Source of the DNA: Spirochaetales bacterium
GTDB taxonomy: Bacteria > Spirochaetota > Spirochaetia > JABEVK01
Assembly (NCBI GenBank): GCA_947478845.1
Contig: CANJXC010000012.1
Span: forward strand, 1 to 64,000
Length of the DNA stretch: 64,000 bases
Direction: 5' to 3'
A program made the translations under genes and the position numbers. The notes under the pieces are model-generated. The model was not told the DNA's origin. It searched no databases and was given only the letters and a program-made list of their open reading frames with translations. This document shows, piece after piece, positions 5,206 to 39,657 of the stretch; within the stretch, counting starts at the first letter, position 1; every line of letters starts with the position of its first letter.

Positions 5206-8200
5206 ATGAACGATTGGGAAATCAAGGGTCGACGACCCATTTATTACCGAAGGGTGAAAAACTTCTGCGAAGTCTTGGGCGCGGACGTGCTCCGCGACCA
5301 AATACCCTTCGAGGCAAAGTGGGCCCTGAGCACCGAAGTTATCCCCCTGAAAGATTCTTTCACCCTGCCCCGCCAACCCATCGCCGAGGGCACCCTTTGG
5401 GGCAAGGCTTGGGACTCAGGCTACTTTCATTTTACCGCAGTGGTTCCCAAGGCCTGGGCAGGAAGGCAGCTAGCGGCCTGGCTCGATTTCGGGGGTGAGG
5501 GGTTGGTGTATTCGGCCCAAGCTCAACCTTTGGCCTCCCTCACCAGCGGCTCGGCGGAAGTGACCAACTACTACAAAGACTTGTACCGCAGCCTTCCGGC
5601 AGCCCGCGGAGGCGAAAGCCTGGAAGTTTGGGTAGAAGCAGCAGCCAACCACCTTTTCGGAATCCGGGAGTCCGATAGACCCGCTAAGAAAACTGACCCC
5701 GCTCGTCACGGCACCTGGGAAGCAAGACTGAACAAGGCTCGCCTGTGCACCTTCGACCAAGAGGTTTGGAGCCTTCGCCACGACTTGATGTTTCTGCTCG
5801 ACCTCTATGATGACCTCGACCACGAATCCGTCAGGGCCGTGCGCCTTCTTACGGCGATGTTCGAAGCCAGTCTTTTCTACAAGGAAGACCCAGCCAACGC
5901 AGCGGCCTGCCGGGCCATCTTGGCCGAACAGTTGCAAAAGCCTGCCTCGGCCTCGTCGCTCTCGACCACGGTGGTGGGCCATGCCCACATCGACACCGCC
6001 TGGCTGTGGCGGCTAAAAGAGACCCGCCGCAAGGTGACCCGCACCTTCGCCGCCCAATTGGATTTGATCGACCGCTACCCGGGCTACATCTTCGGCGCCT
6101 CGGCCGCCGTTCACTACCTGTGGATCAAGCAAGACCATCCGGAAATGTACCAGCGTATTCAAAAAGCGGTAGCGGCCGGGCGCTGGGAGCTTCAAGGCGG
6201 CATGTGGATTGAAACCGACTGCAACCTTGTTTCGGGGGAATCGCTGATCCGGCAGATTCTCCACGGGAAAAACTTCTGGAAAGAGGAGTTTGGCATCGAG
6301 GTGGAAAACTGCTGGATACCCGACGTTTTCGGCTATGCGGCGTCGATGCCGCAGATTCTTAAGAAAACAGGCATCCACACCTTCCTCACCCAGAAAATGT
6401 CGTGGTCGAAGTTCAACGAGTTTCCCCACGACACCTTTGTGTGGCAGGGAATCGATGGCTCAAAGGTGCTCACCCATTTCCCGCCGGAATACACCTACAA
6501 CAGCTTCGCTGACCCGAAAGCTCTGCGGAAAGCCGAAAAAACCTTCCACGAGAAGGCAGACCTCGATGAGTTTATTACGTTGATGGGCATTGGCGATGGC
6601 GGTGGCGGGCCTAAGGAAGAGCACATCGAGAACGTCTTGCGGTCTAAAAACACAGAATCCCTGCCCAAGGCCAACTTTGGCACGGCCGCCAGCCTGTTCC
6701 AGCGCCTCGGTGCCCACACCGCCAGCCTCGAGACCTGGGTGGGCGAGCTGTATTTGGAATACCATCGGGGCACCTACACAACCCAAGCCAAAACCAAGCT
6801 CAACAACCGCAGGCTCGAGTCGGAAATTAGGGCCGTCGAGGCGCTGTTGTCGTGCCTGCCGCTCAACACTTACCCAAGTGGCGAGCTCGACGCCATCGTG
6901 AAAACGCTTCTCCTGCACCAGTTCCACGACATTCTGCCCGGTTCCAGCATCCACGCCGTGTACGAAGATGCCGACAAGGCCTACCAAGAGGCTTTTGCGG
7001 CGCTGGAAGCGGTGAAAGCTGCGGCAGCGGCGCGGCTTACTAAGCCCGAGGCTGCCTCGGTGACGCTTTTCAACTGCCTTTGTGAACCCTTTGTCGGTTT
7101 GCTCGAGCTCCCGGGTCCGACGGGCTGGGTGGATGCAAGTGGCGTCGCTTTGGCGAGTCAGCGCGAGGGTGAGCGCACCCTCAGCCGGGTCACAGTACCC
7201 GCCCTAGGCTTTCTGACCCTGACGCAGGGTAAGACGGCCGCCCAAGGGCAACTGGAGCAGACCACCGATCTGGTTCTGGAAAATGCGCTGGTGAAGTATC
7301 GGTTCGACAAAAACGCCCAGCTCGTGGAAGCCACCGACAAAGTGGCCAAACGCTCCATTTTGAAGCCTGGAAGCCCGGGAAATGTGCTTTCGTACTATGG
7401 CGATCACCCCCACAACTTCGACGCCTGGGATGTGGACTTCTACTACCCCCAGGAAAAACTCGGCGAGGCACGGGGAACCGCTGTGCGCCGCTGGTTAGGA
7501 GGGGCAGTGAGGCAAACCCTCGAGTTCGACCTAGTTGTGGGCAATTCGAGCTTGCGTCAGGTGGTTTCCCTCGAGCCCGACTCCAAGGCTCTCAGGTTTG
7601 AAACCACCGTGGAATGGAACGAGTCGGCTCGCCTGCTTCGGACGGCCTTCCCCCTCGAGTCTTCGGCTACGCAGGCCCTTTGCGACATCCAGTACGGTTT
7701 CATTAGCCGGCCTACCCACGCGAATACAGAATGGGACTTCGCCAAGTTCGAGGTCTGTGCCCACCACTACGTGGATATCAGCGAACCCGACTACGGAGTG
7801 GCGCTCCTCAACGACAGCAAATATGGGCATTCGGTTCGAGACAACGTGCTGGGCCTGAGCCTGTTGCGCTCTCCACTCTACCCCGACCCGGACGCCGATC
7901 TTGGCCACCACGAGTTCACCTACGTGCTGTATCCGCATGAAGGTGATTTGGTTCATTGCGACGTGAGAACCTTAGGCTCCCGTTTGAACCGGCAGCCGCT
8001 GATTTTGCCCGGCGCGAAGGCCCTGCACCAAGGCGCTCCAGTGCATTTGGTGGGCGATGGGGTATCGCTGGAGGTTCTCAAGAAGGCCGAGCGGGAAGAG
8101 GCCTTGATTGTGCGTGTGGTGGAAACCCGTGGCACCCGTGCCCACGCGAAATTGGAGACAACTCTTACCGGTGCGACGCTTGCCGAAACCGACATGATGG

Positions 8201-29310: not shown

Positions 29311-29340
29311 TTGGCGTGAGTTCCTTAGAGCTTGTATAAT
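29311..29340 (+). promoter_or_regulatory. Leaderless-type promoter of the mevalonate operon
   Basis: TTGGCG (29311-29316), 18 bases, a perfect TATAAT (29335-29340), six bases (GGTGGG), ATG at 29347. The predicted transcription start coincides with the ATG. The GGTGGG between them is too close to the ATG to act as a Shine-Dalgarno sequence. Confidence 0.8.
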
Positions 29341-29346
29341 GGTGGG

Positions 29347-30627
29347 ATGAATGGCTCCTTCGCCCCCATCGGACTGAACGATCTTTCGGTCTTTGTCCCG
29401 AGAAACAGCTTGAATCTGGAGGTTCTACGGCGCATCCGGGTAGAAGAAGACCCTGGGCTCGAAAAACACCTCCAGCGAGCGCTAGCCACCACAGGTCAAC
29501 GGTCCATGCGCTTTCCTAGCCCTACCGAAGACACGGTTACCCTCGCCGCCGAGGCCCTTAGGCTCCTGCTTGCCCCGCCGAAGGCGCCCCCGCTCACCGG
29601 CCTCAGGTTTCTCACGCTAGGCACCGAAACTTCGGTGGATATGTCCAAGAGTGGCTCGTCTTACGTTTTGGGACTCCTGCAGAAGTCCGGCCACAACCTG
29701 CCCTTTAACCTTTCGAGCTTTCAAGTTCAACACGCCTGCGCTGGGGGCACGCTTGCCCTTCTCACCACTGCCGGCTTCCTTCAGGCAGCGGGGCGCGAGG
29801 ACGACAGTTCCATCGTACTCACTAGCGATATCGCCCGCTACAAGGCCCCTTCCACGGCTGAGGTGACCCAAGGAGCCGGTGCCACCGGTCTCTGGCTTGC
29901 CCGTCACCCTGATCTGCTCGTGCTTGACCTGCCCACGACGGGCTTTGCCAGCCACGATGTTGATGACTTTTTTCGTCCGCTCGGAAGCACCATTGCCAAG
30001 GTGAAAGGGGGCTACTCACTAGCCTGCTACAATGAGGCCCTTTCGGAAGCCTTCGAAGACCACTGCTCCCGGGCAGGGGTCAGGCCCGGGGATGAGCTTG
30101 AGTCTATCGACCTTTTCTGCTTGCACGTCCCGTATGCGCTCATGCCCATTTCGGCCATGGACAAACTTCTGGCCAAGCATCTCGGGCTCGATGCCGCGTC
30201 GTCACGGAGTTTCCTGGAAAACCGTGGATTCTTCAAGGCTCTTGAGGCTACGGCTGAAATCGGAAACCTCTACACAGGAAGTCTTTGGCTCAATTTGGCC
30301 TTCAGTCTGGAGGAACGCCTCCAAACTCTAGGCTCCGCTATGGCAGGCAAGCGGGTCCTGATGGCCAGCTACGGGTCTGGCAACACGATGGCTGTTTTCA
30401 CTGGCACAATCGCCGCTGGGGCACCCGAGGTGATCGGTCGCTGGAATCTGGAGGGCCTGCTGACAGACAAGAACGAACCGCCGTTTCAGGCTTATCAGTA
30501 CTGGCTCGATACCCACCGTACGTTTGAGAATTACCCCGCCATTCTGGAGCGCTTTCCTCCCGAGGTTGGCCGCTTTGCGCTCACCGGATTAAGGGAGGAC
30601 GGTTACCGTGAGTACTCTCTCATCTGA
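29347..30627 (+). CDS. mvaS: Hydroxymethylglutaryl-CoA synthase
   Basis: 426 residues. It condenses acetyl-CoA with acetoacetyl-CoA, the first committed mevalonate step. The catalytic cysteine is Cys131 in QHACAGGT. GTETSVD lies upstream at about 92-98, and the general-base histidine is His260 in FCLHVPY. The ATG at 29347 is used because the promoter TATAAT ends six bases before it. A TTG reading into the frame from 29332 would include the -10 box itself. First gene of a six-gene pathway cluster; the next start lies inside its last 20 bases. Confidence 0.88.
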   Translation: MNGSFAPIGLNDLSVFVPRNSLNLEVLRRIRVEEDPGLEKHLQRALATTGQRSMRFPSPTEDTVTLAAEALRLLLAPPKAPPLTGLRFLTLGTETSVDMSKSGSSYVLGLLQKSGHNLPFNLSSFQVQHACAGGTLALLTTAGFLQAAGREDDSSIVLTSDIARYKAPSTAEVTQGAGATGLWLARHPDLLVLDLPTTGFASHDVDDFFRPLGSTIAKVKGGYSLACYNEALSEAFEDHCSRAGVRPGDELESIDLFCLHVPYALMPISAMDKLLAKHLGLDAASSRSFLENRGFFKALEATAEIGNLYTGSLWLNLAFSLEERLQTLGSAMAGKRVLMASYGSGNTMAVFTGTIAAGAPEVIGRWNLEGLLTDKNEPPFQAYQYWLDTHRTFENYPAILERFPPEVGRFALTGLREDGYREYSLI

Positions 30628-31708
30628 CCCGAGCGCGGGCCTGTCCCAGCGTAAAACCCAGCACATAGAAATCTGTACCCAGCCCGAGTACGACCCTGAG
30701 GGTGGTTCGGCCGGCTGGGAACACCTGCAGTTTAGACACAAAGCCTTGCCGGAACTCAATTGGGACGAAATCGACACCCGTACCGAATTTCTAGGGCGCC
30801 AAGTTCGGTTGCCACTGTTTATCAGCAGCATGACGGGAGGTTCTCAGTCGAGCTATGGCATCAACAAGGATTTAGCCAGAGCTGCTCAGGCGGCAGGAAT
30901 CCCCGTGGGAATGGGTTCCATTCGAATCCTGTTCCGAAAGCCCGAAGCCTTTGCCGATTTTCACCTGCGTCCCCTTGCCCCCGACGTACCCATCTTTGCC
31001 AATTTTGGGGCCCAGCAACTTGTGGAACAGAAGGCCAGCGACAACTTCAAGACCCTTTTCGAGTGGAACCGCAAGCTCGAGGTCGACGGCATCGCGATTC
31101 ACTTGAATCCAGGGCAGGAACTCTATCAGGACGACGGCGACCGTGACTTTCGCGGCCTGCGCCGGGTCGTCTGCGACTTTATCGAACATTCACCTCTGCC
31201 CGTGATCGTGAAAGAGACCGGCTTCGGAATCGCTCCCGAGGAGGTTGATTTCCTGCTTAAAGCGGGTGCTGCCTACGTTGATCTGGCCGGTTCGGGGGGC
31301 ACCAACTGGCTTACAGTGGAATCCTACCGCCTCGATAGTACCGGCTTTGCAAGCGGAGAGCCCTTTCGGGACTGGGGTTGGCCGACGGCAGTGCTGGCGG
31401 CCGCAGTGGGTCACCGCAAAGGCAGGGTGCTCGCTTCGGGAGGACTTCGCAATGGCCTCGACGTGGCCAAGGCTCTGGCGCTGGGCTCCCATGCCGCCGG
31501 TCTGGCCCTACCGTTTGTCCGCGCCGTGAAATCAGCCCCTGAGGGTGGTGGTGCCGAGGCGGTTCTGGCTCTGATCTCTGGCCTTGAGCGTTCGCTAAAA
31601 ACGTCCATGCTGTTGTCGGGAAGCGCCAACCTCAAGCAGTTGCGCCGAGCTAGGTTAAACAAAAGCTTTGAGTTTGAGCACCGGCTGCGGCAATTGCGGG
31701 CGCCCTGA
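30608..31708 (+). CDS. fni: Isopentenyl-diphosphate delta-isomerase, type 2 (FMN)
   Basis: 366 residues, TIM barrel. Features: R-K-T-Q-H-I-E-I near the N terminus, FISSMTGGS, GMGSIR, HLNPGQEL, VKETGFG, and the phosphate-binding VDLAGSGGTNW. It interconverts IPP and DMAPP using FMN and Mg. GTG start with GGGAGG about nine bases upstream; it overlaps mvaS by 20 bases and its stop shares a base with the ATG of the reductase gene (TGATG). Confidence 0.93.
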   Translation: MSTLSSDPSAGLSQRKTQHIEICTQPEYDPEGGSAGWEHLQFRHKALPELNWDEIDTRTEFLGRQVRLPLFISSMTGGSQSSYGINKDLARAAQAAGIPVGMGSIRILFRKPEAFADFHLRPLAPDVPIFANFGAQQLVEQKASDNFKTLFEWNRKLEVDGIAIHLNPGQELYQDDGDRDFRGLRRVVCDFIEHSPLPVIVKETGFGIAPEEVDFLLKAGAAYVDLAGSGGTNWLTVESYRLDSTGFASGEPFRDWGWPTAVLAAAVGHRKGRVLASGGLRNGLDVAKALALGSHAAGLALPFVRAVKSAPEGGGAEAVLALISGLERSLKTSMLLSGSANLKQLRRARLNKSFEFEHRLRQLRAP

Positions 31709-32871
31709 TGGAAACTCCGAGCCCCGCCCTGCGCAAACTTACACTCGCCCAGCGACGCCAATGGCTGACAGACTCTGTCTCCTTCGACGCTCAGGAGGCC
31801 GAGTCTTTTCGGGCCGACACCTGGGGGCACGAGCTGGCAGATTTGCTGGTGGAAAACAGCGTTGGTTGGTTCCGGTTGCCGCTGGGCATCGTGAGCGGGC
31901 TCGTCGTCAACGGTGTTTCCCACGAGGTGCCCCTGGTCACAGAAGAACCTTCCGTAATCGCTGCGGCCAGTTATGCCGCCCGACTTTTGGGAAAGGCAGG
32001 CGGCCTGCAAGCCACGGCGGCACCCCCGGTGATGCGGGCGCAGGTGTTCCTCGAAGGCACTGCCCCCGGGGCGGAAGCCCGCTTGTTGGAACATGGTGCG
32101 TCTCTGGAAGCCAAGGCCAGAGATCTTTTGGGCTCGATGGAACGCCGTGGCGGAGGCCTTCGGGGTTTGAGCGTGAAGCTCCTCCCAGAAGTCGGTTGCC
32201 TAGCCGTCAACATCGATGTCGACGTCAGGGACGCTTTGGGGGCGAACCTTCTGAACAGCCTTGCGGAGTCGCTCACCCCAGCCCTTGAAACAGCTTTTGG
32301 TGGGCACAAGATACTGGCTATTCTCAGCAATGACGCCTCCGAGCGGATAGCCAGCGCGAGGTTTCAAGTGCCCGTGGGAAATCTGGCCAAGCCTGGCTTC
32401 CCAGGTCTCGAAATGGCGCGCCGTCTGGTGCTTGCCGCTGAAATAGCCCAGCACGACCCCCAGCGGGCAGTGACGCACAACAAAGGCATCATGAACGGTA
32501 TCGCCGCGCTTGCCTTGGCCACCGGGAACGACACCAGGGCCTTGGAAGCCAGCGTGCACAGCTGGGCCTCGCACACGGGAACCTACCGTGGGCTTTCCAC
32601 CTACTGCGTCGAAGACGGCCTTTTGAGAGGGACGCTGACGCTGCCACTGGCGCTAGCCACTGTGGGTGGGTCGACTCAGGCCCTTCCCCTCGCAAGGGTC
32701 GCTGTCAAGCTCCTGGAAGTGACCTCCTCCCAAGGCCTGTGTGAAATCGCGGTTGCCTTGGGATTAGCGCAAAACTTCGCCGCCCTGTTCGCCTTAGCCG
32801 GCGAAGGCCTTCAACGGGGTCACATGGCGCTCCATGCCCGGCGGGTTGTTTCCGGCCTCCCGTTGGGCTAG
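31708..32871 (+). CDS. mvaA: HMG-CoA reductase, class II
   Basis: 387 residues, soluble, no membrane anchor. ENSVGWFRLPLG carries the catalytic Glu49, VTEEPSVIAAAS the substrate loop, DALGAN the catalytic Asp175, and THNKGIMNG the catalytic Lys259. The flap histidine lies in the C-terminal H-A-R-R region. This is the class II form found in bacteria that make mevalonate for isoprenoids. The ATG overlaps the preceding stop by one base. A second promoter, for mvaD, lies in its last 26 bases. Confidence 0.93.
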   Translation: METPSPALRKLTLAQRRQWLTDSVSFDAQEAESFRADTWGHELADLLVENSVGWFRLPLGIVSGLVVNGVSHEVPLVTEEPSVIAAASYAARLLGKAGGLQATAAPPVMRAQVFLEGTAPGAEARLLEHGASLEAKARDLLGSMERRGGGLRGLSVKLLPEVGCLAVNIDVDVRDALGANLLNSLAESLTPALETAFGGHKILAILSNDASERIASARFQVPVGNLAKPGFPGLEMARRLVLAAEIAQHDPQRAVTHNKGIMNGIAALALATGNDTRALEASVHSWASHTGTYRGLSTYCVEDGLLRGTLTLPLALATVGGSTQALPLARVAVKLLEVTSSQGLCEIAVALGLAQNFAALFALAGEGLQRGHMALHARRVVSGLPLG

Positions 32872-32874
32872 AAT
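32846..32874 (+). promoter_or_regulatory. Internal leaderless-type promoter before mvaD
   Basis: TTGTTT (32846-32851), 17 bases, TAGAAT (32869-32874), six bases (CGCCCC), ATG at 32881. It overlaps the end of the HMG-CoA reductase gene. No Shine-Dalgarno sequence lies before mvaD, so this start seems to need its own transcript. Confidence 0.7.
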
Positions 32875-32880
32875 CGCCCC

Positions 32881-33843
32881 ATGAGACGCCTAGCCCATGC
32901 CGAAGCTGGTCCCAGCCTCGCCCTCATTAAATATTGGGGTAAGGCCTCGGCCGAGAACAACACACCCGCCACTGGTTCGTTGGCCGTTACCCTTAGCGGA
33001 CTCACCTCGAGCACTCGGGCCAGCTTCGCCGATGCCGACCGAATCACGGTTAACGGCCAAATCCAAAACCTGGAACGTTTTGCTCCTTTTCTTGACAGCC
33101 TTCGCGCGGAACTGGGTTTGGCCGGAGCGAGGTTTGCTGTCGATTCCACAAACAACTTCCCCACAGCCGCCGGGTTGGCGTCTTCCTCCTCGGGGTTCGC
33201 CGCTTTGGCAGGAGCGCTGACTTTGCTCGCCGGCCGAGAACCCGAACCCCGGCTGGTCTCGCGGCTCGCCCGTTTGGGCTCCGGCAGTGCCACCCGACCG
33301 GTTTATGGCGGTTTCACAGTGTTCGAAGCAGGACAAGAGGAAGCGGTGGCCGAGCACGACGAAAACTTCTGGCCCGAGTTCAGGGTGGTCCTTGCCGTTG
33401 TGCGCGAAGGGGCCAAAGCTGTCTCAAGCCGGGTGGGCATGGAGCGCTCCCGGCTGACGAGCCCCTACTACGACCAATGGGTGTCCACCTCTCCGTCGGT
33501 GCTCACCGGCGCCCGAAAGGCGCTCGCCGAACGCGACTGGAATGCCCTAGGTCCGCTTATCCGACAGAGCTATCTGAGGATGTTTTCCACCATGTTCAGT
33601 TCAAATCCCCCCCTGATTTACTGGCAACCTGAGAGCATGGCGCTCATCCAGGCTTTGGAAAGCCTGAGGGCCGAAGGTTATCAGGCCTGGGAGACCATGG
33701 ATGCCGGTCCTCAGGTGAAAGTATTTTGTCCCGCTGATCAGGCCGAAGCCCTGGTGAAGGAGCTCGATCAACGAGTCTCTGGGCTCCGTTTCCTCACGGC
33801 AGCCCCCGGACCTGGCCTGCGAACGTGGTGGGATCAGAATTGA
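32881..33843 (+). CDS. mvaD: Diphosphomevalonate decarboxylase
   Basis: 320 residues, GHMP superfamily. ALIKYWGK (14-21) is diagnostic of this enzyme, AAGLASSSSGFAAL (97-110) is the ATP loop, and GSGSATRPVYGGF carries the Arg of the substrate site (usually SACRS). It converts mevalonate 5-diphosphate to IPP. The start is fixed by the promoter box six bases upstream. Its stop overlaps the next start in a TTGA. Confidence 0.93.
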   Translation: MRRLAHAEAGPSLALIKYWGKASAENNTPATGSLAVTLSGLTSSTRASFADADRITVNGQIQNLERFAPFLDSLRAELGLAGARFAVDSTNNFPTAAGLASSSSGFAALAGALTLLAGREPEPRLVSRLARLGSGSATRPVYGGFTVFEAGQEEAVAEHDENFWPEFRVVLAVVREGAKAVSSRVGMERSRLTSPYYDQWVSTSPSVLTGARKALAERDWNALGPLIRQSYLRMFSTMFSSNPPLIYWQPESMALIQALESLRAEGYQAWETMDAGPQVKVFCPADQAEALVKELDQRVSGLRFLTAAPGPGLRTWWDQN

Positions 33844-34805
33844 GTTTCCGGTTCACGGTTCCCGGAAACCTTCTTTTGGCCGGTGAGTATGCCGTGCTCG
33901 AGGAAGGTGGCCTTGGGTTGGCCCTCGCGGTGGAGCCAAGGCTGGTGGTCACCGTGTATCCTAGTTCAGAATGGGAAATTCTGGGCCGCTGGCCCGGCAC
34001 GCAAGAGCGCTGGAGGCCTGGGGAGAGCGCAACTTTTGCAGGCTCGCTGTTCTTGGCGGCCAACGAACTGCTCACCAGCCGCGGCGACGAGCGCCAAAGG
34101 AAGTTTTCCCGGTCTATTCCCGCGGCCCGGATCGAGCTGGACTCGTCGGCGTTTTTTGATCAGCAGGGGCGCAAACGCGGTTTCGGGTCGTCGGCCGCTG
34201 TGGCTGTGGCCATCACCTGTGCGCTGGCTCAACTACAGGACCGCGACACTGGAAGCACCCATCTGGCGGCCGTTGCCGCCCACCGGCGGGCCCAAGGTGG
34301 GGCAGGTTCTGGTTACGATGTTTCGGCCAGCTTTTTTGGAGGCTTGGGACTTTTTACCGGCGGAGAGTTTCCTGCTTGGCAGGCGTTGAATCCCGAGATC
34401 CTCCCCTACATGGCGAGCTTCGCGGGGCCTCAGTCCGTTAAAACAATCCGCTCCATTGACCTCTACCGCAATTGGCAGACCCTGAAACCAAAGGAAGCGG
34501 GAGAGTTTCTCGAACACTCCAACCAGGCCGTGCAGACGTTGGCGAGATCCGTTGGCTGGAACTCCTTGCGTTCCGCGTGGTCTGACTGCCGCCAGCTAGG
34601 TTGGAACCTAGGAGATGCAGTGGGAAGCCAGGCAAGGGTAAACATCCCCAAGTCTTTTCCGGCGCCAGAAGAGGTCTTCTACAAATCGCTGGGAGCGGGA
34701 AACGAGACCGGTTTGGCTTCTGGTCCCCGTGAGAGTTTCCCCCAACCGCTCCCTGAAGGCCTCGAAGAAATTCAGGTGGCTCGGGAAGGTGTTGAGTGGG
34801 AATAA
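33840..34805 (+). CDS. Phosphomevalonate kinase
   Basis: 321 residues, GHMP kinase. VPGNLLLAGEYAVLEEG at the N terminus is typical of phosphomevalonate kinase, KRGFGSSAAVAVA is the ATP loop, and GSGYDVSASFFGG follows. The start proposed is the TTG at 33840, overlapping the mvaD stop as TTGA, with GGTGGGA seven bases upstream. GTG codons at 33825 and 33828 are alternatives that would add four or five residues. It phosphorylates mevalonate 5-phosphate. Confidence 0.88.
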   Translation: MSFRFTVPGNLLLAGEYAVLEEGGLGLALAVEPRLVVTVYPSSEWEILGRWPGTQERWRPGESATFAGSLFLAANELLTSRGDERQRKFSRSIPAARIELDSSAFFDQQGRKRGFGSSAAVAVAITCALAQLQDRDTGSTHLAAVAAHRRAQGGAGSGYDVSASFFGGLGLFTGGEFPAWQALNPEILPYMASFAGPQSVKTIRSIDLYRNWQTLKPKEAGEFLEHSNQAVQTLARSVGWNSLRSAWSDCRQLGWNLGDAVGSQARVNIPKSFPAPEEVFYKSLGAGNETGLASGPRESFPQPLPEGLEEIQVAREGVEWE

Positions 34806-35707
34806 ACGTCGCGCATGCCAAGCTGCTTCTGTTTGGAGAGCACGCTGCCGTCTACGGAGCTCCGGCTGTGGGCTTGGGCTTGCCGTGGCGGCTTTCCCTC
34901 GAAACCGGGCCCGAGGCAGACGATTGGGTGTTGCCCGGCCTCGGCCCCTACGAACAGCGCTTGCGCGAGTTGCTGGCTCATTTTCAACGGGCTCGTACGG
35001 CGGCCAATTTACCAGCTTTGGCTCCTTGCCAGATCACACTTGCGTCCCAGATGCCGTTGGCCTCCGGATTCGGATCTTCAGGTGCCCTTTGCGCGGCTCT
35101 GGCAAGCCTGTTTTTTCCCGCAGCGACGCTCGCCGAACTCGACCACTTGGCTTGGAAGGCAGAACACTTGTTTCATGGAACCCCCTCAGGCATCGATACC
35201 GTTTTGGCTCTGCGCCCGGGGTGGTGGGCCCTGCTCCCCGGCCGCACGCCACCCGAGGCTTATCCACTGCGTGCTCCCACTCAGGTGCTGGTTACCGGGG
35301 CGGTGACCCGTGAAAGCGATACCAAAGCGCTGGTGGGTGACTTGGCCCGTCGAAGGGCGCAAGGGGAGGCGGCGGTACTCTCGGGCCTGTTTCGTCTTGG
35401 AGAAATTGCCCGCGAGGCTATTGACTCCCTCGAGACTAAAAAAGATGCTCTGCTGCCCGGATTGATGGGCGCCGCACGCGGGGAACTGGTTTCACTAGGG
35501 CTGGAAACGCCACTCCACTCCCGCCTGATCGATACCGCGCTCACCGACACCGGTGCCCTGGCCGGCAAACTTTCAGGAGCCGGAGGCGGCGGGGCTTGGG
35601 TGCTCATGTACCAGGATGAAGCTACCGCCCGGCTTGCGTTGCCCCAACTTACGGCCGCTCTGCCTGCTTCTGCTTGGACGCTGACGCCCCAGATGGTCAC
35701 GACTTGA
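34796..35707 (+). CDS. mvk: Mevalonate kinase
   Basis: 303 residues, GHMP kinase. AHAKLLLFGEHAAVYG (6-21) is the classical mevalonate kinase start, PLASGFGSSGAL the ATP loop, GTPSGIDT carries the catalytic aspartate, and GKLSGAGGGGAW the C-terminal motif. GTG start with GGAAGGT upstream, overlapping the phosphomevalonate kinase gene by ten bases. It is the first kinase of the pathway though encoded last, as in Borrelia. Confidence 0.92.
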   Translation: MGINVAHAKLLLFGEHAAVYGAPAVGLGLPWRLSLETGPEADDWVLPGLGPYEQRLRELLAHFQRARTAANLPALAPCQITLASQMPLASGFGSSGALCAALASLFFPAATLAELDHLAWKAEHLFHGTPSGIDTVLALRPGWWALLPGRTPPEAYPLRAPTQVLVTGAVTRESDTKALVGDLARRRAQGEAAVLSGLFRLGEIAREAIDSLETKKDALLPGLMGAARGELVSLGLETPLHSRLIDTALTDTGALAGKLSGAGGGGAWVLMYQDEATARLALPQLTAALPASAWTLTPQMVTT

Positions 35708-36318
35708 ACGAGATCTGGCTCATCCGGCACGGACAAACCGAATGGAACACCGAAAAACGCTTCCAAGGCAGGCAGGATTCCCCTCTCACCAAGCTGGGCC
35801 AGGACCAGGCTTTAGCTGCGGGCCACTGGCTTGCCAAAACCACTTTCTCTAGTGCTTGGTGTTCGCCCGCAAGCCGTGCCCAAAGCACCGCTTCCCTGGT
35901 TAATTCTTGCCGAAACAGGCCGCTTGAGTTCCGAACATCAGAAGCCCTCGCCGAGATGCACTTCGGAGAGTGGGAAGGTCGAACCCGCCCCGAAATCGAG
36001 GCCCTTTGGGGTGAAACGGCCCGCCACTTCTGGCACGCTCCCAACCTCTGGCAGCCCTTTGGGGGAGAAACCTTCCTCCAAGTACAAAAAAGACTCACAA
36101 GTTTCCTATCCACGTTAGCCCCTGCCACTGATCCGGTCTTAGTGGTCAGCCACGGTATGTCCATTCAACTTCTGCTCCACGCCATACACGAAAAACCCTT
36201 CGCCACACTCCATGAAACCCCCTTTGTGCTGCAAGCAAGTCTCACAAAAATTAGAGTTACTGCGGAATTTGCACCTTCTCGCTGGGAAATTGTCGTTGCC
36301 GGACAAATTCTTTCTTGA
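35704..36318 (+). CDS. Histidine phosphatase (phosphoglycerate-mutase-like)
   Basis: 204 residues. LIRHGQTEWN has the phospho-accepting histidine. SPASRAQSTA, EMHFGEWEG and VSHGMSIQLL supply the remaining catalytic residues. Broad-specificity phosphatases of this family act on many small phosphates, so its substrate is open. It starts at a TTG overlapping the mevalonate kinase stop (TTGA), so it is cotranscribed with the mevalonate genes. A role in clearing phosphorylated intermediates is possible but unproven. Its stop lies inside the -35 box of coxB. Confidence 0.85.
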   Translation: MNEIWLIRHGQTEWNTEKRFQGRQDSPLTKLGQDQALAAGHWLAKTTFSSAWCSPASRAQSTASLVNSCRNRPLEFRTSEALAEMHFGEWEGRTRPEIEALWGETARHFWHAPNLWQPFGGETFLQVQKRLTSFLSTLAPATDPVLVVSHGMSIQLLLHAIHEKPFATLHETPFVLQASLTKIRVTAEFAPSRWEIVVAGQILS

Positions 36319-36353: not shown

Positions 36354-37157
36354 ATGAAACACAAACTGATAAGAGCACTCTTGGCTTTGTTCCTCTTAGC
36401 TGCGGGCTTTCCTGTTTTCGGGAACGGTTTCGTATCTGAGGCCATTACCGACTACGGAGTGAAGATCACAGACCTTTCGTTCGTGATGATGTTCCTCTGT
36501 GTCATCTTCTTCGTGCTTGTGGTGGGAGTCATCGGCTATTGTCTTTGGAAGTTCCGAGCCACGGGACCAGGCCAAGAGGGTGCCAAAATCCACGGCTTTC
36601 CGGCGTTGGAAATCGTTTGGACGGTGGTCCCTGCCCTTATCATGCTTTGGTTGGGAGCAATTAGCAGTGTCCTGGTGATACAGCAGCTCAACCCGCCTGC
36701 GCAGACTTTGCTGATCAAGGTCACCGGTTACCAGTTCGGCTTCAATTTTGAGTATTTTGATTCGAACACGGCCTTCGATACCAACAGCTCCGACATCAAG
36801 GTGGAAAAGAATATCTGCGGAAACCCCGCGGTGTCTGTCAAGATCAAGAGCCTCAACGTCAAAACGACTGATGATTTTACAATTCCCAAGGGCACAGACA
36901 TCCGTTTCCTCACAACCGCAAAAGATGTCATCCACAGCTTCTGGGTTCCTGAGTTTCTTGTGAAGCGCGACATGGTTCCAGGATTGGTCGGCGACTTCTG
37001 GATCAATGCTATCAAGACCGGCGACTTCACTGCCAAGTGCGCTGCCCTTTGCGGCGCCAGCCATGGCGTCATGGTGGCAAAGCTTCACGTAGTGGAAAAA
37101 CAAGACTTTGAGACCTGGCTCGCAGCCCAAGCCGCGGCGTCGCCGCAGGCTAACTAA
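36354..37157 (+). CDS. coxB: Cytochrome c oxidase subunit II (CuA protein)
   Basis: 267 residues. A signal-anchor (1-23) precedes two membrane helices (about 41-63 and 86-110). The cupredoxin domain has all side-chain CuA ligands: His194, Cys229, Cys233, His237, Met240. Two departures are clear. The aromatic electron-entry segment, normally with two Trp, reads GYQFGFNFEY, and the Glu between the two cysteines (usual CxELC) is Ala (CAALC). An extra Cys-containing loop lies at 140-165. There is no fused cytochrome c. ATG chosen from promoter spacing. First gene of coxBAC-sco. Confidence 0.9.
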   Translation: MKHKLIRALLALFLLAAGFPVFGNGFVSEAITDYGVKITDLSFVMMFLCVIFFVLVVGVIGYCLWKFRATGPGQEGAKIHGFPALEIVWTVVPALIMLWLGAISSVLVIQQLNPPAQTLLIKVTGYQFGFNFEYFDSNTAFDTNSSDIKVEKNICGNPAVSVKIKSLNVKTTDDFTIPKGTDIRFLTTAKDVIHSFWVPEFLVKRDMVPGLVGDFWINAIKTGDFTAKCAALCGASHGVMVAKLHVVEKQDFETWLAAQAAASPQAN

Positions 37158-37169
37158 CTGGAGGAACGC

Positions 37170-38825
37170 TTGAGCGAAACTACTGTCGAACATCACGGCC
37201 ATCAAGAACACGGCCATCACGACTACAAACCGCATTGGTCTGACTGGCTGTTTACCACAGACGCCAAGAAAATCGGTTTCATTTACATCATCATGTCGTT
37301 TGTTTATTTCATCGTGGGAGGTGCTCTTGCGGGAATGATCCGCATTGAATTGGCCACTCCCAAGATGGACTTCGTCGACGGAGTTACTTACAACGGCCTT
37401 GTCTCTATGCATGGAACGATTATGATCTTTATGTGGGTCATGCCCTTCGTTGCCGGTATCATCAACTTTGTCATGCCGCTGCAAATTGGAGCGCGTGATA
37501 TGGCCTTTCCGCGGCTCAACGCCATGGGCCTGTGGCTTTTTAACGCCGGTGCCTTGGTGCTTTTGGCAACCTTCCTTTTGGGAATGCCCCAAGCCGGTTG
37601 GACCAGCTATGCCCCCCTTTCCACCCTCGATAAGAAAGAAATCGGCATGGACCTCTGGATCCTCGGAATTCAGCTTTTGGGAGTGTCCTCCATAATGTCG
37701 GGGCTCAATTTCATCGTCACTGTGGTGAAGTTGCGCGCCCCTGGCATGACGTGGTTCCGCATGCCTTTGTTTGTGTGGTCGAGCTTGGTGGTGGGATGGC
37801 TCATGATCCTGGCCATGCCTGCCATCGCCGTGACCTTGCTCGAAGTCTTTCTCGAACGCCACTTCGGTTTTACCTTTTTTGGTCCAGCCCACGGTGGCGA
37901 CCCGATACTCTACCAGCATCTGTTCTGGTTCTTTGGTCACCCCGAAGTGTACATTCTCATCATGCCGGCCTTCGGCATCATCAGTGAAATCATACCAGTT
38001 TTCAGCCGGAAGCCCGTTTTTGGCTACAAGTTGATGGCTTGGTCGATGATCCTCATCGCCTTCCTGAGCTTTCTGCTCTGGGCCCACCATATGTTCAGCT
38101 CAGGCATGGACCCTCGCCTGTCTCTGCCGTTTATGATCCTCACCATGATTATTGGTGTTCCCACTGGTGTGAAGATGTTCAATTGGATGGCCACCATGTG
38201 GCGGGGCAAGTTGTACCTCGATAGCCCGATGATTTTTTCTCTGGGCTTCCTCATCACCTTTGCCGTTGGCGGTTTTGGTGGCATTATTCTCGCCTCAATA
38301 CCCATCGATTTGCACATCACCAACACCTACTTTGTCGTTGGACATATGCATTACGTCCTCTTCGGGGGCTCGGTGATGGCGATTTTTGCGGCCATCTACT
38401 TTTGGTTCCCCAAAATGACCGGGTACAAATTGAACGAAAAACTGGCACTTTGGCACTTTGGATTCACGTTTATCGGCTCCAACTTGACCTTCTTGCCGAT
38501 GCACTGGCTCGGAATGTTGGGAATGCCCCGTCGAGTAGCCGACTACGACCCTCTGTACGCCAACGACAATCTGATGGCCTCGATAGGTGGAGCCATCATG
38601 GGCTTCGGGACCCTCTTCTTGGTGGCCAACTACTTCCTAACCCTTCGGAAGAAGGAGCGCTGTGCCGAGAATCCTTGGAACTCCAAGGGTTTGGAATGGA
38701 CCCATGCCTCTTCTCCCCCTTCTGCCAACAACTTCGATGAGATTCCCATCGTCACGACCGACCCCTATGATTACGGCGTCCTGACACCCCCCAAAGCGGC
38801 CAAGGAGGCCAAGGCCCATGGCTGA
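37170..38825 (+). CDS. coxA: Cytochrome c oxidase subunit I
   Basis: 551 residues, twelve membrane helices. Low-spin haem ligands are His81 and His394 or its neighbour His392. CuB ligands are His257, His306 and His307, with the His-Tyr pair in GHPEVY (His257, Glu259, Tyr261). The D-channel entry Asp110 (RDMAFPRLN) and K-channel Lys335 (PTGVK) are present, so it is an A-type proton-pumping oxidase by sequence. The N terminus is His-rich (HHGHQEHGHH). TTG start with GGAGGA seven bases upstream. Confidence 0.96.
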   Translation: MSETTVEHHGHQEHGHHDYKPHWSDWLFTTDAKKIGFIYIIMSFVYFIVGGALAGMIRIELATPKMDFVDGVTYNGLVSMHGTIMIFMWVMPFVAGIINFVMPLQIGARDMAFPRLNAMGLWLFNAGALVLLATFLLGMPQAGWTSYAPLSTLDKKEIGMDLWILGIQLLGVSSIMSGLNFIVTVVKLRAPGMTWFRMPLFVWSSLVVGWLMILAMPAIAVTLLEVFLERHFGFTFFGPAHGGDPILYQHLFWFFGHPEVYILIMPAFGIISEIIPVFSRKPVFGYKLMAWSMILIAFLSFLLWAHHMFSSGMDPRLSLPFMILTMIIGVPTGVKMFNWMATMWRGKLYLDSPMIFSLGFLITFAVGGFGGIILASIPIDLHITNTYFVVGHMHYVLFGGSVMAIFAAIYFWFPKMTGYKLNEKLALWHFGFTFIGSNLTFLPMHWLGMLGMPRRVADYDPLYANDNLMASIGGAIMGFGTLFLVANYFLTLRKKERCAENPWNSKGLEWTHASSPPSANNFDEIPIVTTDPYDYGVLTPPKAAKEAKAHG

Positions 38826-39657
38826 CTCCAATTCTCACAACAGTTCGGTAACTCCCTACACCCATCTTGGGCACACTAACCCTTGGCCTTTTACCGCCTC
38901 GGTGGGACTCATGGTGGCCGTTTTCGGCTTACTTTTGGTTGCCTTAAAGAGTCCTGTTGGATGGATGCTGACCATCATTGGTGCCGGGGTGTTCCTCATC
39001 GCGGTCTTTTCTTGGGTGACCATGCTGGTTAGGGAAGATATCGGGGAGGCAACAGGACTGACAAACCCCGAGTTCCCATCCATTGGCCGATGGATGGTGG
39101 GATTTCTGATCCTATCGGAGACCTTTCTCTTCGGCGCCTTATTTGCCACCTACTTTTACCTGCGAAATCACGATCAGGTGTATACCGGCAGTCTGCTGCA
39201 TTTTTATAATCTTGAGGGCAAAGTTTTTGAGATTTGGGGCCTTTTCCCCATCCTGAACACCATTTTTCTGGTGTCCAGCTCCGTAACGGTGCATTTTGCT
39301 GAAGAGGCTCTGCGCCACGGTAAGGAAAAACTCTTTCAGATCCTTCTAGCCATCACCGTGGTCCTCGGAGTGTTGTTTGTAGGCGGGCAGGTGTACGAGT
39401 ATTACAACTTTGCGGTGAACGAGCACTTCACACCGCAAGTGAGCACCTTTGCAGGTACGTTTTACACCCTGACCACCCTTCACGGTTCCCACGTGCTCGC
39501 CGGCGTCATCGTGCTGACAAGCCTTCTGGTGGGCTCCTTTTACAAGAGTTTGTCTCCAAAGCGACACATTGCCCTCTCGGTTGCCTCCATTTACTGGCAC
39601 TTTGTCGACGTGATTTGGATCTTGCTGGTGGCCATCATCTACTTGCGCTACATCTAG
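38818..39657 (+). CDS. coxC: Cytochrome c oxidase subunit III
   Basis: 279 residues, seven membrane helices. ETFLFGALFATYF, the central long helices, TLHGSHVLAG and the final WHFVDVIWILLVAIIYL are family signatures. It stabilises subunit I and its proton uptake. The ATG lies inside the end of coxA (eight-base overlap). No subunit IV gene follows; the sco gene comes next. Confidence 0.94.
   Translation: MADSNSHNSSVTPYTHLGHTNPWPFTASVGLMVAVFGLLLVALKSPVGWMLTIIGAGVFLIAVFSWVTMLVREDIGEATGLTNPEFPSIGRWMVGFLILSETFLFGALFATYFYLRNHDQVYTGSLLHFYNLEGKVFEIWGLFPILNTIFLVSSSVTVHFAEEALRHGKEKLFQILLAITVVLGVLFVGGQVYEYYNFAVNEHFTPQVSTFAGTFYTLTTLHGSHVLAGVIVLTSLLVGSFYKSLSPKRHIALSVASIYWHFVDVIWILLVAIIYLRYI

What the first reader, a model, noticed from the sequence alone, without database searches (positions are those of the whole stretch)
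36354..37157. Cytochrome oxidase subunit II with altered electron entry and metal-bridge positions
All CuA side-chain ligands are present. The aromatic segment that carries the tryptophan receiving electrons from cytochrome c reads GYQFGFNFEY, with Phe at both usual Trp positions. The Glu of CxELC, whose backbone binds copper and whose side chain binds Mg/Mn between CuA and the active site, is Ala. A Cys-containing insertion follows the aromatic patch. The electron donor may differ from a standard cytochrome c; none is encoded in the window.
Basis: partly seen in the sequence, partly recalled or inferred. Interest (0 to 1): 0.65.

Follow-up and report, generated by a model that had tools for sequence, protein, structure and literature searches.

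The report
CuA oxidase without its usual donor
A spirochaete has a complete oxygen-reducing copper-haem enzyme that has lost the usual electron-entry tryptophans and a bridging metal site, in a genome where searches found none of the standard proteins that normally feed such an enzyme, so it probably receives its electrons from an unusual partner.

Summary
ORF 36354-37157 is a genuine CuA-bearing CoxII (TIGR02866, above cut-off) in a cox2-cox1-cox3-SCO operon, reading GYQFGFNFEY and CAALCGASHGVM. Phe at the first Trp position is ordinary (half of relatives, including Thermus caa3), but among 113 aligned CuA-complete sequences only this protein, a 46% identical orthologue from an acid-mine spirochaete, and one divergent CuA domain lack Trp throughout the patch. 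The Glu-to-Ala change is matched in CoxI (bovine His368/Asp369 are Thr/Asn here, Thr/Glu in the orthologue): the whole Mg/Mn site is missing. The "insertion" has a length common elsewhere; its Cys is conserved in the orthologue. The 99.75%-complete genome has no detectable class I cytochrome c, cytochrome bc, NrfD-type complex III or type 1 cupredoxin. It does have two cytochrome-c synthases, one hexahaem/monohaem locus, and a DUF2231-DOMON protein beside haem O synthase. Quinol-site residues are absent from CoxI. A paper on the orthologue's MAG independently reports the oxidase without other oxidative-phosphorylation genes. Best reading: a functional CuA oxidase with a remodelled entry face and a non-standard donor, whose identity is inferred, not shown.

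The parts
36354..37157 (+). coxB/coxII: subunit II, 267 aa, signal region, two TM helices, CuA cupredoxin domain, no fused haem c
   Evidence: AF2 model pLDDT 89, best PDB match P. denitrificans CcO subunit II Z 19
36726..36755 (+). aromatic patch GYQFGFNFEY (residues 125-134); Phe128, Gly129, Phe130 at bovine Trp104, Tyr105, Trp106
36813..36830 (+). ICGNPA (residues 154-159) in the loop after the patch; Cys155 conserved in the orthologue
36933..36935 (+). His194, CuA ligand (bovine His161)
37038..37073 (+). CAALCGASHGVM (residues 229-240): CuA ligands C229, C233, H237, M240; Ala231 at the Mg-site Glu position (bovine Glu198)
37170..38825 (+). coxA/coxI: A-type subunit I; catalytic and proton-path motifs GHPEVY, AHHMF, FGYK, VGHMHYV, NFVMPLQIGARD, GMPRR present
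38319..38324 (+). CoxI Thr384-Asn385 at bovine His368-Asp369: the other two Mg/Mn ligand positions, also lost
38818..39657 (+). coxC/coxIII
   Evidence: PF00510
39668..40465 (+). SCO1/SenC copper chaperone, likely CuA assembly factor
   Evidence: PF02630

Best explanation
This is subunit II of a working A-type haem-copper oxidase that keeps CuA but has lost the Trp/Tyr/Trp docking patch and the whole Mg/Mn site. The usual chain (quinol, bc1 or alternative complex III, small cytochrome c, Trp/Tyr patch, CuA) appears not to exist in this organism. Most likely a membrane-bound or multihaem carrier docks on the remodelled face, where Phe128/Phe130 and the ICGNPA loop sit, and reduces CuA directly; electrons then pass to haem a and the haem a3-CuB site as in other A-type enzymes. 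The candidates found are the hexahaem/monohaem c-type locus with its own Ccs synthase (C3:50.4-55.6 kb) and a DUF2231-DOMON b-type protein beside ctaB (C2:290.2-291.2 kb). Shown: sequence features, operon, conservation in an orthologue, Mg-site loss in both subunits, absence of detectable standard donors. Inferred: activity, docking, donor identity.
For: CuA ligands and catalytic motifs of CoxI are intact, so this is not a decayed gene. The features recur in the orthologue L009/G005 at 46% identity, with AYQFGFDFSYY, ICGNPA and CAVLC. Loss of the subunit II Glu goes with loss of the CoxI Asp (5 of 7 against 3 of 68; Fisher p 6e-5; not corrected for phylogeny, two of the 5 share one quinol-oxidase CoxI, two of the 3 are gaps). 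No PF00034, PF13442, PF00033, PF13631 or PF03916 in G000, each ringing in control genomes. CXXCH codes in the genome are near background (170 against 157 for the reversed pattern); of about 105 read in context, 7 are credible haem c sites, all in the C3 locus. DUF2231-DOMON beside CtaB. PMC8357290 reports that MAG 31, the source of L009, has a caa3-type oxidase but no other oxidative-phosphorylation genes.
Against: Two Ccs cytochrome-c synthases exist, and about 65 CXXCH sites were not read, so an ordinary but divergent cytochrome c could be missed. No gene links any candidate donor to the cox operon; the DOMON gene is tied to it only through ctaB, and in MAG 31 ctaB has no DOMON neighbour. 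The DUF2231-DOMON and C3-locus proteins could serve iron, nitrite or other reactions. No biochemical data.
Confidence: 0.55

Rival explanations
1. An ordinary cytochrome c oxidase whose cytochrome c and quinol:cytochrome c reductase were missed (divergent, or in the unread part of the genome); the Phe substitutions are neutral drift.
For: Each substitution occurs singly in other lineages; two Ccs synthases imply c-type cytochromes are made; Thermus caa3 has Phe at the first Trp.
Against: Five family searches negative in a 99.75%-complete genome while controls ring; CXXCH count near background; whole-patch Trp loss plus whole Mg-site loss conserved across two genera.
Confidence: 0.27
2. A quinol oxidase that has kept a vestigial or relay CuA and takes electrons directly from quinol.
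For: No bc1 or class I cytochrome c found; quinol-dependent NarGHI present; the congener G001 uses a cyo-type quinol oxidase and carries a CuA-less CoxII paralogue beside cyoAB.
Against: CoxI has V, L, T, G where the bo3 quinol site has R71, D75, H98, Q101, whereas the congener's CyoB has R, D, H, Q. Both subunits score far below quinol-oxidase model cut-offs. CuA ligands are all conserved, also in the orthologue.
Confidence: 0.08
3. A decaying or recently acquired, non-functional oxidase.
For: Patchy presence: among family members searched only G000 and G005 have this CoxII; the cox operon has lower GC (52% against 57%).
Against: All CuA ligands and CoxI catalytic motifs intact, full operon with SCO, conserved orthologue on a long shared stem; CtaB retained.
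Confidence: 0.05

Closest known systems
Thermus caa3 cytochrome c oxidase subunit II (PDB 2yev)
   Same: Top phmmer hit in PDB; GYQF start of the patch, KDVIHSFWVP, CxxLCGASH CuA site
   Different: Thermus has Trp-Trp after the Phe, Glu in CAELC, a short loop and a C-terminal fused haem c; the window protein has Gly-Phe, Ala, a 38-residue loop and no haem c
Paracoccus/Rhodobacter/bovine aa3 cytochrome c oxidase subunit II
   Same: Best fold match (Z about 18-19), a long loop after the patch, full CuA ligand set
   Different: These have QWYW and a Glu-bearing CxExC with a Mg/Mn site; here QFGF, CAALC, and Thr-Asn in CoxI
Orthologue in Spirochaetales MAG 31 (L009, JABEVL010000288.1)
   Same: QFGF patch, ICGNPA loop, CAVLC, CoxI Thr-Glu, cox2-cox1 order
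   Different: 46% identical; the MAG is only about 78% complete; ctaB lies near the cox genes there
CYBDOM proteins (cytochrome b561 + DOMON, e.g. plant HYP1, PMC10784544)
   Same: The candidate donor DUF2231-DOMON also joins a membrane domain to a DOMON domain with candidate Met/His haem b ligands
   Different: DUF2231 is not shown to be cytochrome b561-like or to bind haem; no evidence it reduces CuA

Membership tests
A-type CuA cytochrome c oxidase, subunit II (CoxB) | COX2 and COX2_TM domains, CoxB equivalog above cut-off | tested here: met
   PF00116 61.1 bits, PF02790 40.9, TIGR02866 175.2 over 147.7
A-type CuA cytochrome c oxidase, subunit II (CoxB) | CuA side-chain ligands H, C, C, H, M | tested here: met
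   H194, C229, C233, H237, M240 aligned with 112 other rows
A-type CuA cytochrome c oxidase, subunit II (CoxB) | Partner CoxI with A-type catalytic motifs in the operon | tested here: met
   TIGR02891 680.2 over 670.75; GHPEVY, AHHMF, FGYK and other motifs
A-type CuA cytochrome c oxidase, subunit II (CoxB) | Mg/Mn site: subunit II Glu, subunit I His and Asp (typical, not strictly defining) | tested here: not met
   Ala231 in CoxII, Thr384-Asn385 in CoxI; also missing in one Solirubrobacterales oxidase, L033
A-type CuA cytochrome c oxidase, subunit II (CoxB) | Trp in the aromatic patch (typical, not strictly defining) | tested here: not met
   FGF; 110 of 113 CuA-complete rows have at least one Trp
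A-type CuA cytochrome c oxidase, subunit II (CoxB) | Oxidises a cytochrome c | not testable with these tools
   No class I cytochrome c detected in the genome, but other c-type proteins exist
caa3 oxidase (fused haem c) | C-terminal CXXCH domain on subunit II | tested here: not met
   No CXXCH in the 267 aa; most spirochaete-phylum relatives read have it
bo3/aa3-600 quinol oxidase | Loss of CuA ligands in subunit II | tested here: not met
   All CuA ligands present
bo3/aa3-600 quinol oxidase | QH-site residues R71, D75, H98, Q101 (E. coli CyoB numbering, from memory) in subunit I | tested here: not met
   V, L, T, G in the window CoxI; R, D, H, Q in G001 CyoB

The most novel reading that the evidence does not exclude
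A CuA oxidase that has uncoupled from cytochrome c altogether and is reduced by a b-type DOMON membrane cytochrome (or a multihaem carrier) in a respiratory chain with no complex III, and that pumps protons without the Mg/Mn site.
Probability: 0.2. Interest if true: 0.8.

Novelty: new variant of a known kind. Interest (0 to 1): 0.52.

Why it matters
It is a natural enzyme missing two features often treated as central to cytochrome oxidase: the aromatic electron-entry patch and the Mg/Mn-centred region proposed to take part in proton movement near haem a3. If active, it would test how much either matters without mutagenesis. If its donor is a b-type or multihaem protein, it would be a respiratory chain joining a CuA oxidase to the cell without cytochrome bc or a small cytochrome c, in a spirochaete order better known for anaerobes (own knowledge).

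Tried and rejected
Trp displaced by the insertion: rejected, the patch aligns without gaps and the loop begins after it. Quinol oxidase: rejected on CuA ligands and QH residues. Cupredoxin donor: the one weak PF13473 hit (C11:79 kb) lacks a His/Cys/His/Met type 1 set and sits with a copper ATPase, so it looks like copper handling. Alternative complex III: no NrfD. A cluster of five CXXCH codes at C5:103.8-106.7 kb proved not to be a cytochrome. DOMON homologue on plasmids: none; in other fetched loci: none. Homologues of the monohaem membrane protein among solved structures: none convincing. The G001 CuA-less CoxII joins another long branch in the tree, so its exact kinship is unsure.

Full report
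What is there. The ORF at 36354-37157 encodes 267 aa. It matches COX2, COX2_TM and the CoxB equivalog above cut-off, is the only PF00116 protein found in the genome, and its AlphaFold2 model (pLDDT 89) matches Paracoccus cytochrome c oxidase subunit II with Z about 19. It opens a tight operon: cox2, cox1 (37170), cox3 (38818), SCO (39668).

The electron-entry patch. The patch reads GYQFGFNFEY. In 89 aligned CoxII the first position is F in 44, W in 29 and Y in 15, so that change alone is ordinary; Thermus caa3 has it. Phe at the second position is rarer, and the other proteins with it keep Trp at the first. Of 113 rows with full CuA ligands, three have no Trp in the patch: the window protein, its orthologue L009, and L007, a divergent CuA domain. 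The literature is divided on the role of Trp104: the W121Q mutant of Paracoccus suggested it is the entry, but the bovine complex structure favours Tyr105 to Met207 (PMC5286356). Neither Trp104 nor Tyr105 is present here.

The metal bridge. Ala231 replaces the Glu whose side chain binds Mg and whose carbonyl binds CuA (role: PMC10194837). The change is not isolated. CoxI has Thr384-Asn385 at bovine His368-Asp369; the orthologue has Thr-Glu. Across paired loci, loss of the subunit II Glu goes with loss of the subunit I Asp (5 of 7 against 3 of 68, Fisher p 6e-5). That test ignores phylogeny; two of the five rows share one quinol-oxidase CoxI, and two of the three are alignment gaps. A Solirubrobacterales oxidase (L033) shows the same double loss, so the trait is rare rather than unique. 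That His368 and Asp369 complete the Mg site is from general knowledge of the bovine enzyme.

The loop. The 38-residue loop after the patch is matched in length by 16 of the 113 rows (32-42 residues), and the Rhodobacter enzyme also has a long loop there. Its ICGNPA motif, with the only Cys of the periplasmic domain besides the CuA pair, is kept in the orthologue.

Kin. Window and L009 form a two-member clade on a long stem (support 99). L009 and G005 carry the identical CoxII ORF and appear to be the same MAG. In a sample of 393 genomes of the phylum, 53 had a match; none of the best-scoring loci that were read has QFGF, but weaker matches were not read. The congener G001 has a cyoAB quinol oxidase with a CuA-less CoxII paralogue in front of it (GYQFGWRFDYF, LSDGLCGASLGLM).

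The donor. G000 is 99.75% complete in 22 contigs. PF00034, PF13442, PF00033, PF13631 and PF03916 found nothing in it, each while ringing in control genomes. The CXXCH code occurs 170 times against 157 for the reversed pattern. About 105 of these were read in context; the only credible haem c sites are seven at C3:50.4-53.7 kb, a hexahaem protein and a monohaem membrane protein next to a ResB/CcsB synthase. A second synthase lies at C3:194.6-196.8 kb. So c-type cytochromes are made, but the usual ones are not seen. The genome also has NarKGHJI (NarK and NarJ by reading), hence presumably a quinol pool; CtaB; and directly after CtaB a DUF2231-DOMON fusion with candidate Met and His haem ligands. 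A DOMON domain joined to a membrane cytochrome b561 forms a trans-membrane electron conduit in plants (PMC10784544). The cupredoxin-like hit is not a convincing type 1 carrier. Independently, the paper describing MAG 31, from acid mine drainage, reports a caa3-type oxidase with no other oxidative-phosphorylation genes (PMC8357290); its caa3 label does not fit the sequence, as no haem c is fused.

Not a quinol oxidase. CoxI has V, L, T, G at the bo3 quinol-site positions, while the congener's CyoB has R, D, H, Q; these positions were taken from memory of the E. coli enzyme.

Mechanism. Most likely a membrane-bound or multihaem carrier reduces CuA at a remodelled face, and the rest works as in A-type oxidases. 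The identity of the carrier is a lead only. The main gaps are the unread CXXCH sites and the lack of any genetic link between a carrier and the oxidase.

Noticed in passing
L100:5294-6025 (G001, same genus): A CuA-less CoxII paralogue (GYQFGWRFDYF, lost Cys and His ligands) lies directly upstream of cyoA-cyoB, as if an extra subunit or relic beside a quinol oxidase.
   Followed up: partly
L006:1471-2178 (G018, same class): Another CoxII-like protein with a degenerate CuA site (VLSAVDCGMGRHAM) although the DVIHSFWV strand is kept.
   Followed up: no
window 29332-36318: A mevalonate-pathway gene run (named by reading: HMG-CoA synthase, type 2 IDI, HMG-CoA reductase, decarboxylase and kinases) and a phosphoglycerate-mutase-like gene lie on the same strand directly upstream of cox2.
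   Followed up: no
L139:7239-8177 (G000:C2:290238-291176): DUF2231 membrane domain fused to a DOMON domain, right after haem O synthase; no homologue in the plasmid collection.
   Followed up: partly
L033:1442-2491 and 5671-7023: A Solirubrobacterales genome with two CoxII lacking the CxELC Glu (CALLC, CAVLC); one partner CoxI also lacks the Mg-site Asp (Gly).
   Followed up: no
L094:12619-13748 (G000:C3:52618-53747): A lipoprotein-like gene and a monohaem membrane protein with no Pfam, NCBIfam or convincing PDB match, beside a hexahaem cytochrome and Ccs genes.
   Followed up: partly
L099:3727-5250 (G005): The orthologue-bearing MAG has a cytochrome b-like protein (PF13631) of 507 aa that was not found in G000.
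   Followed up: no
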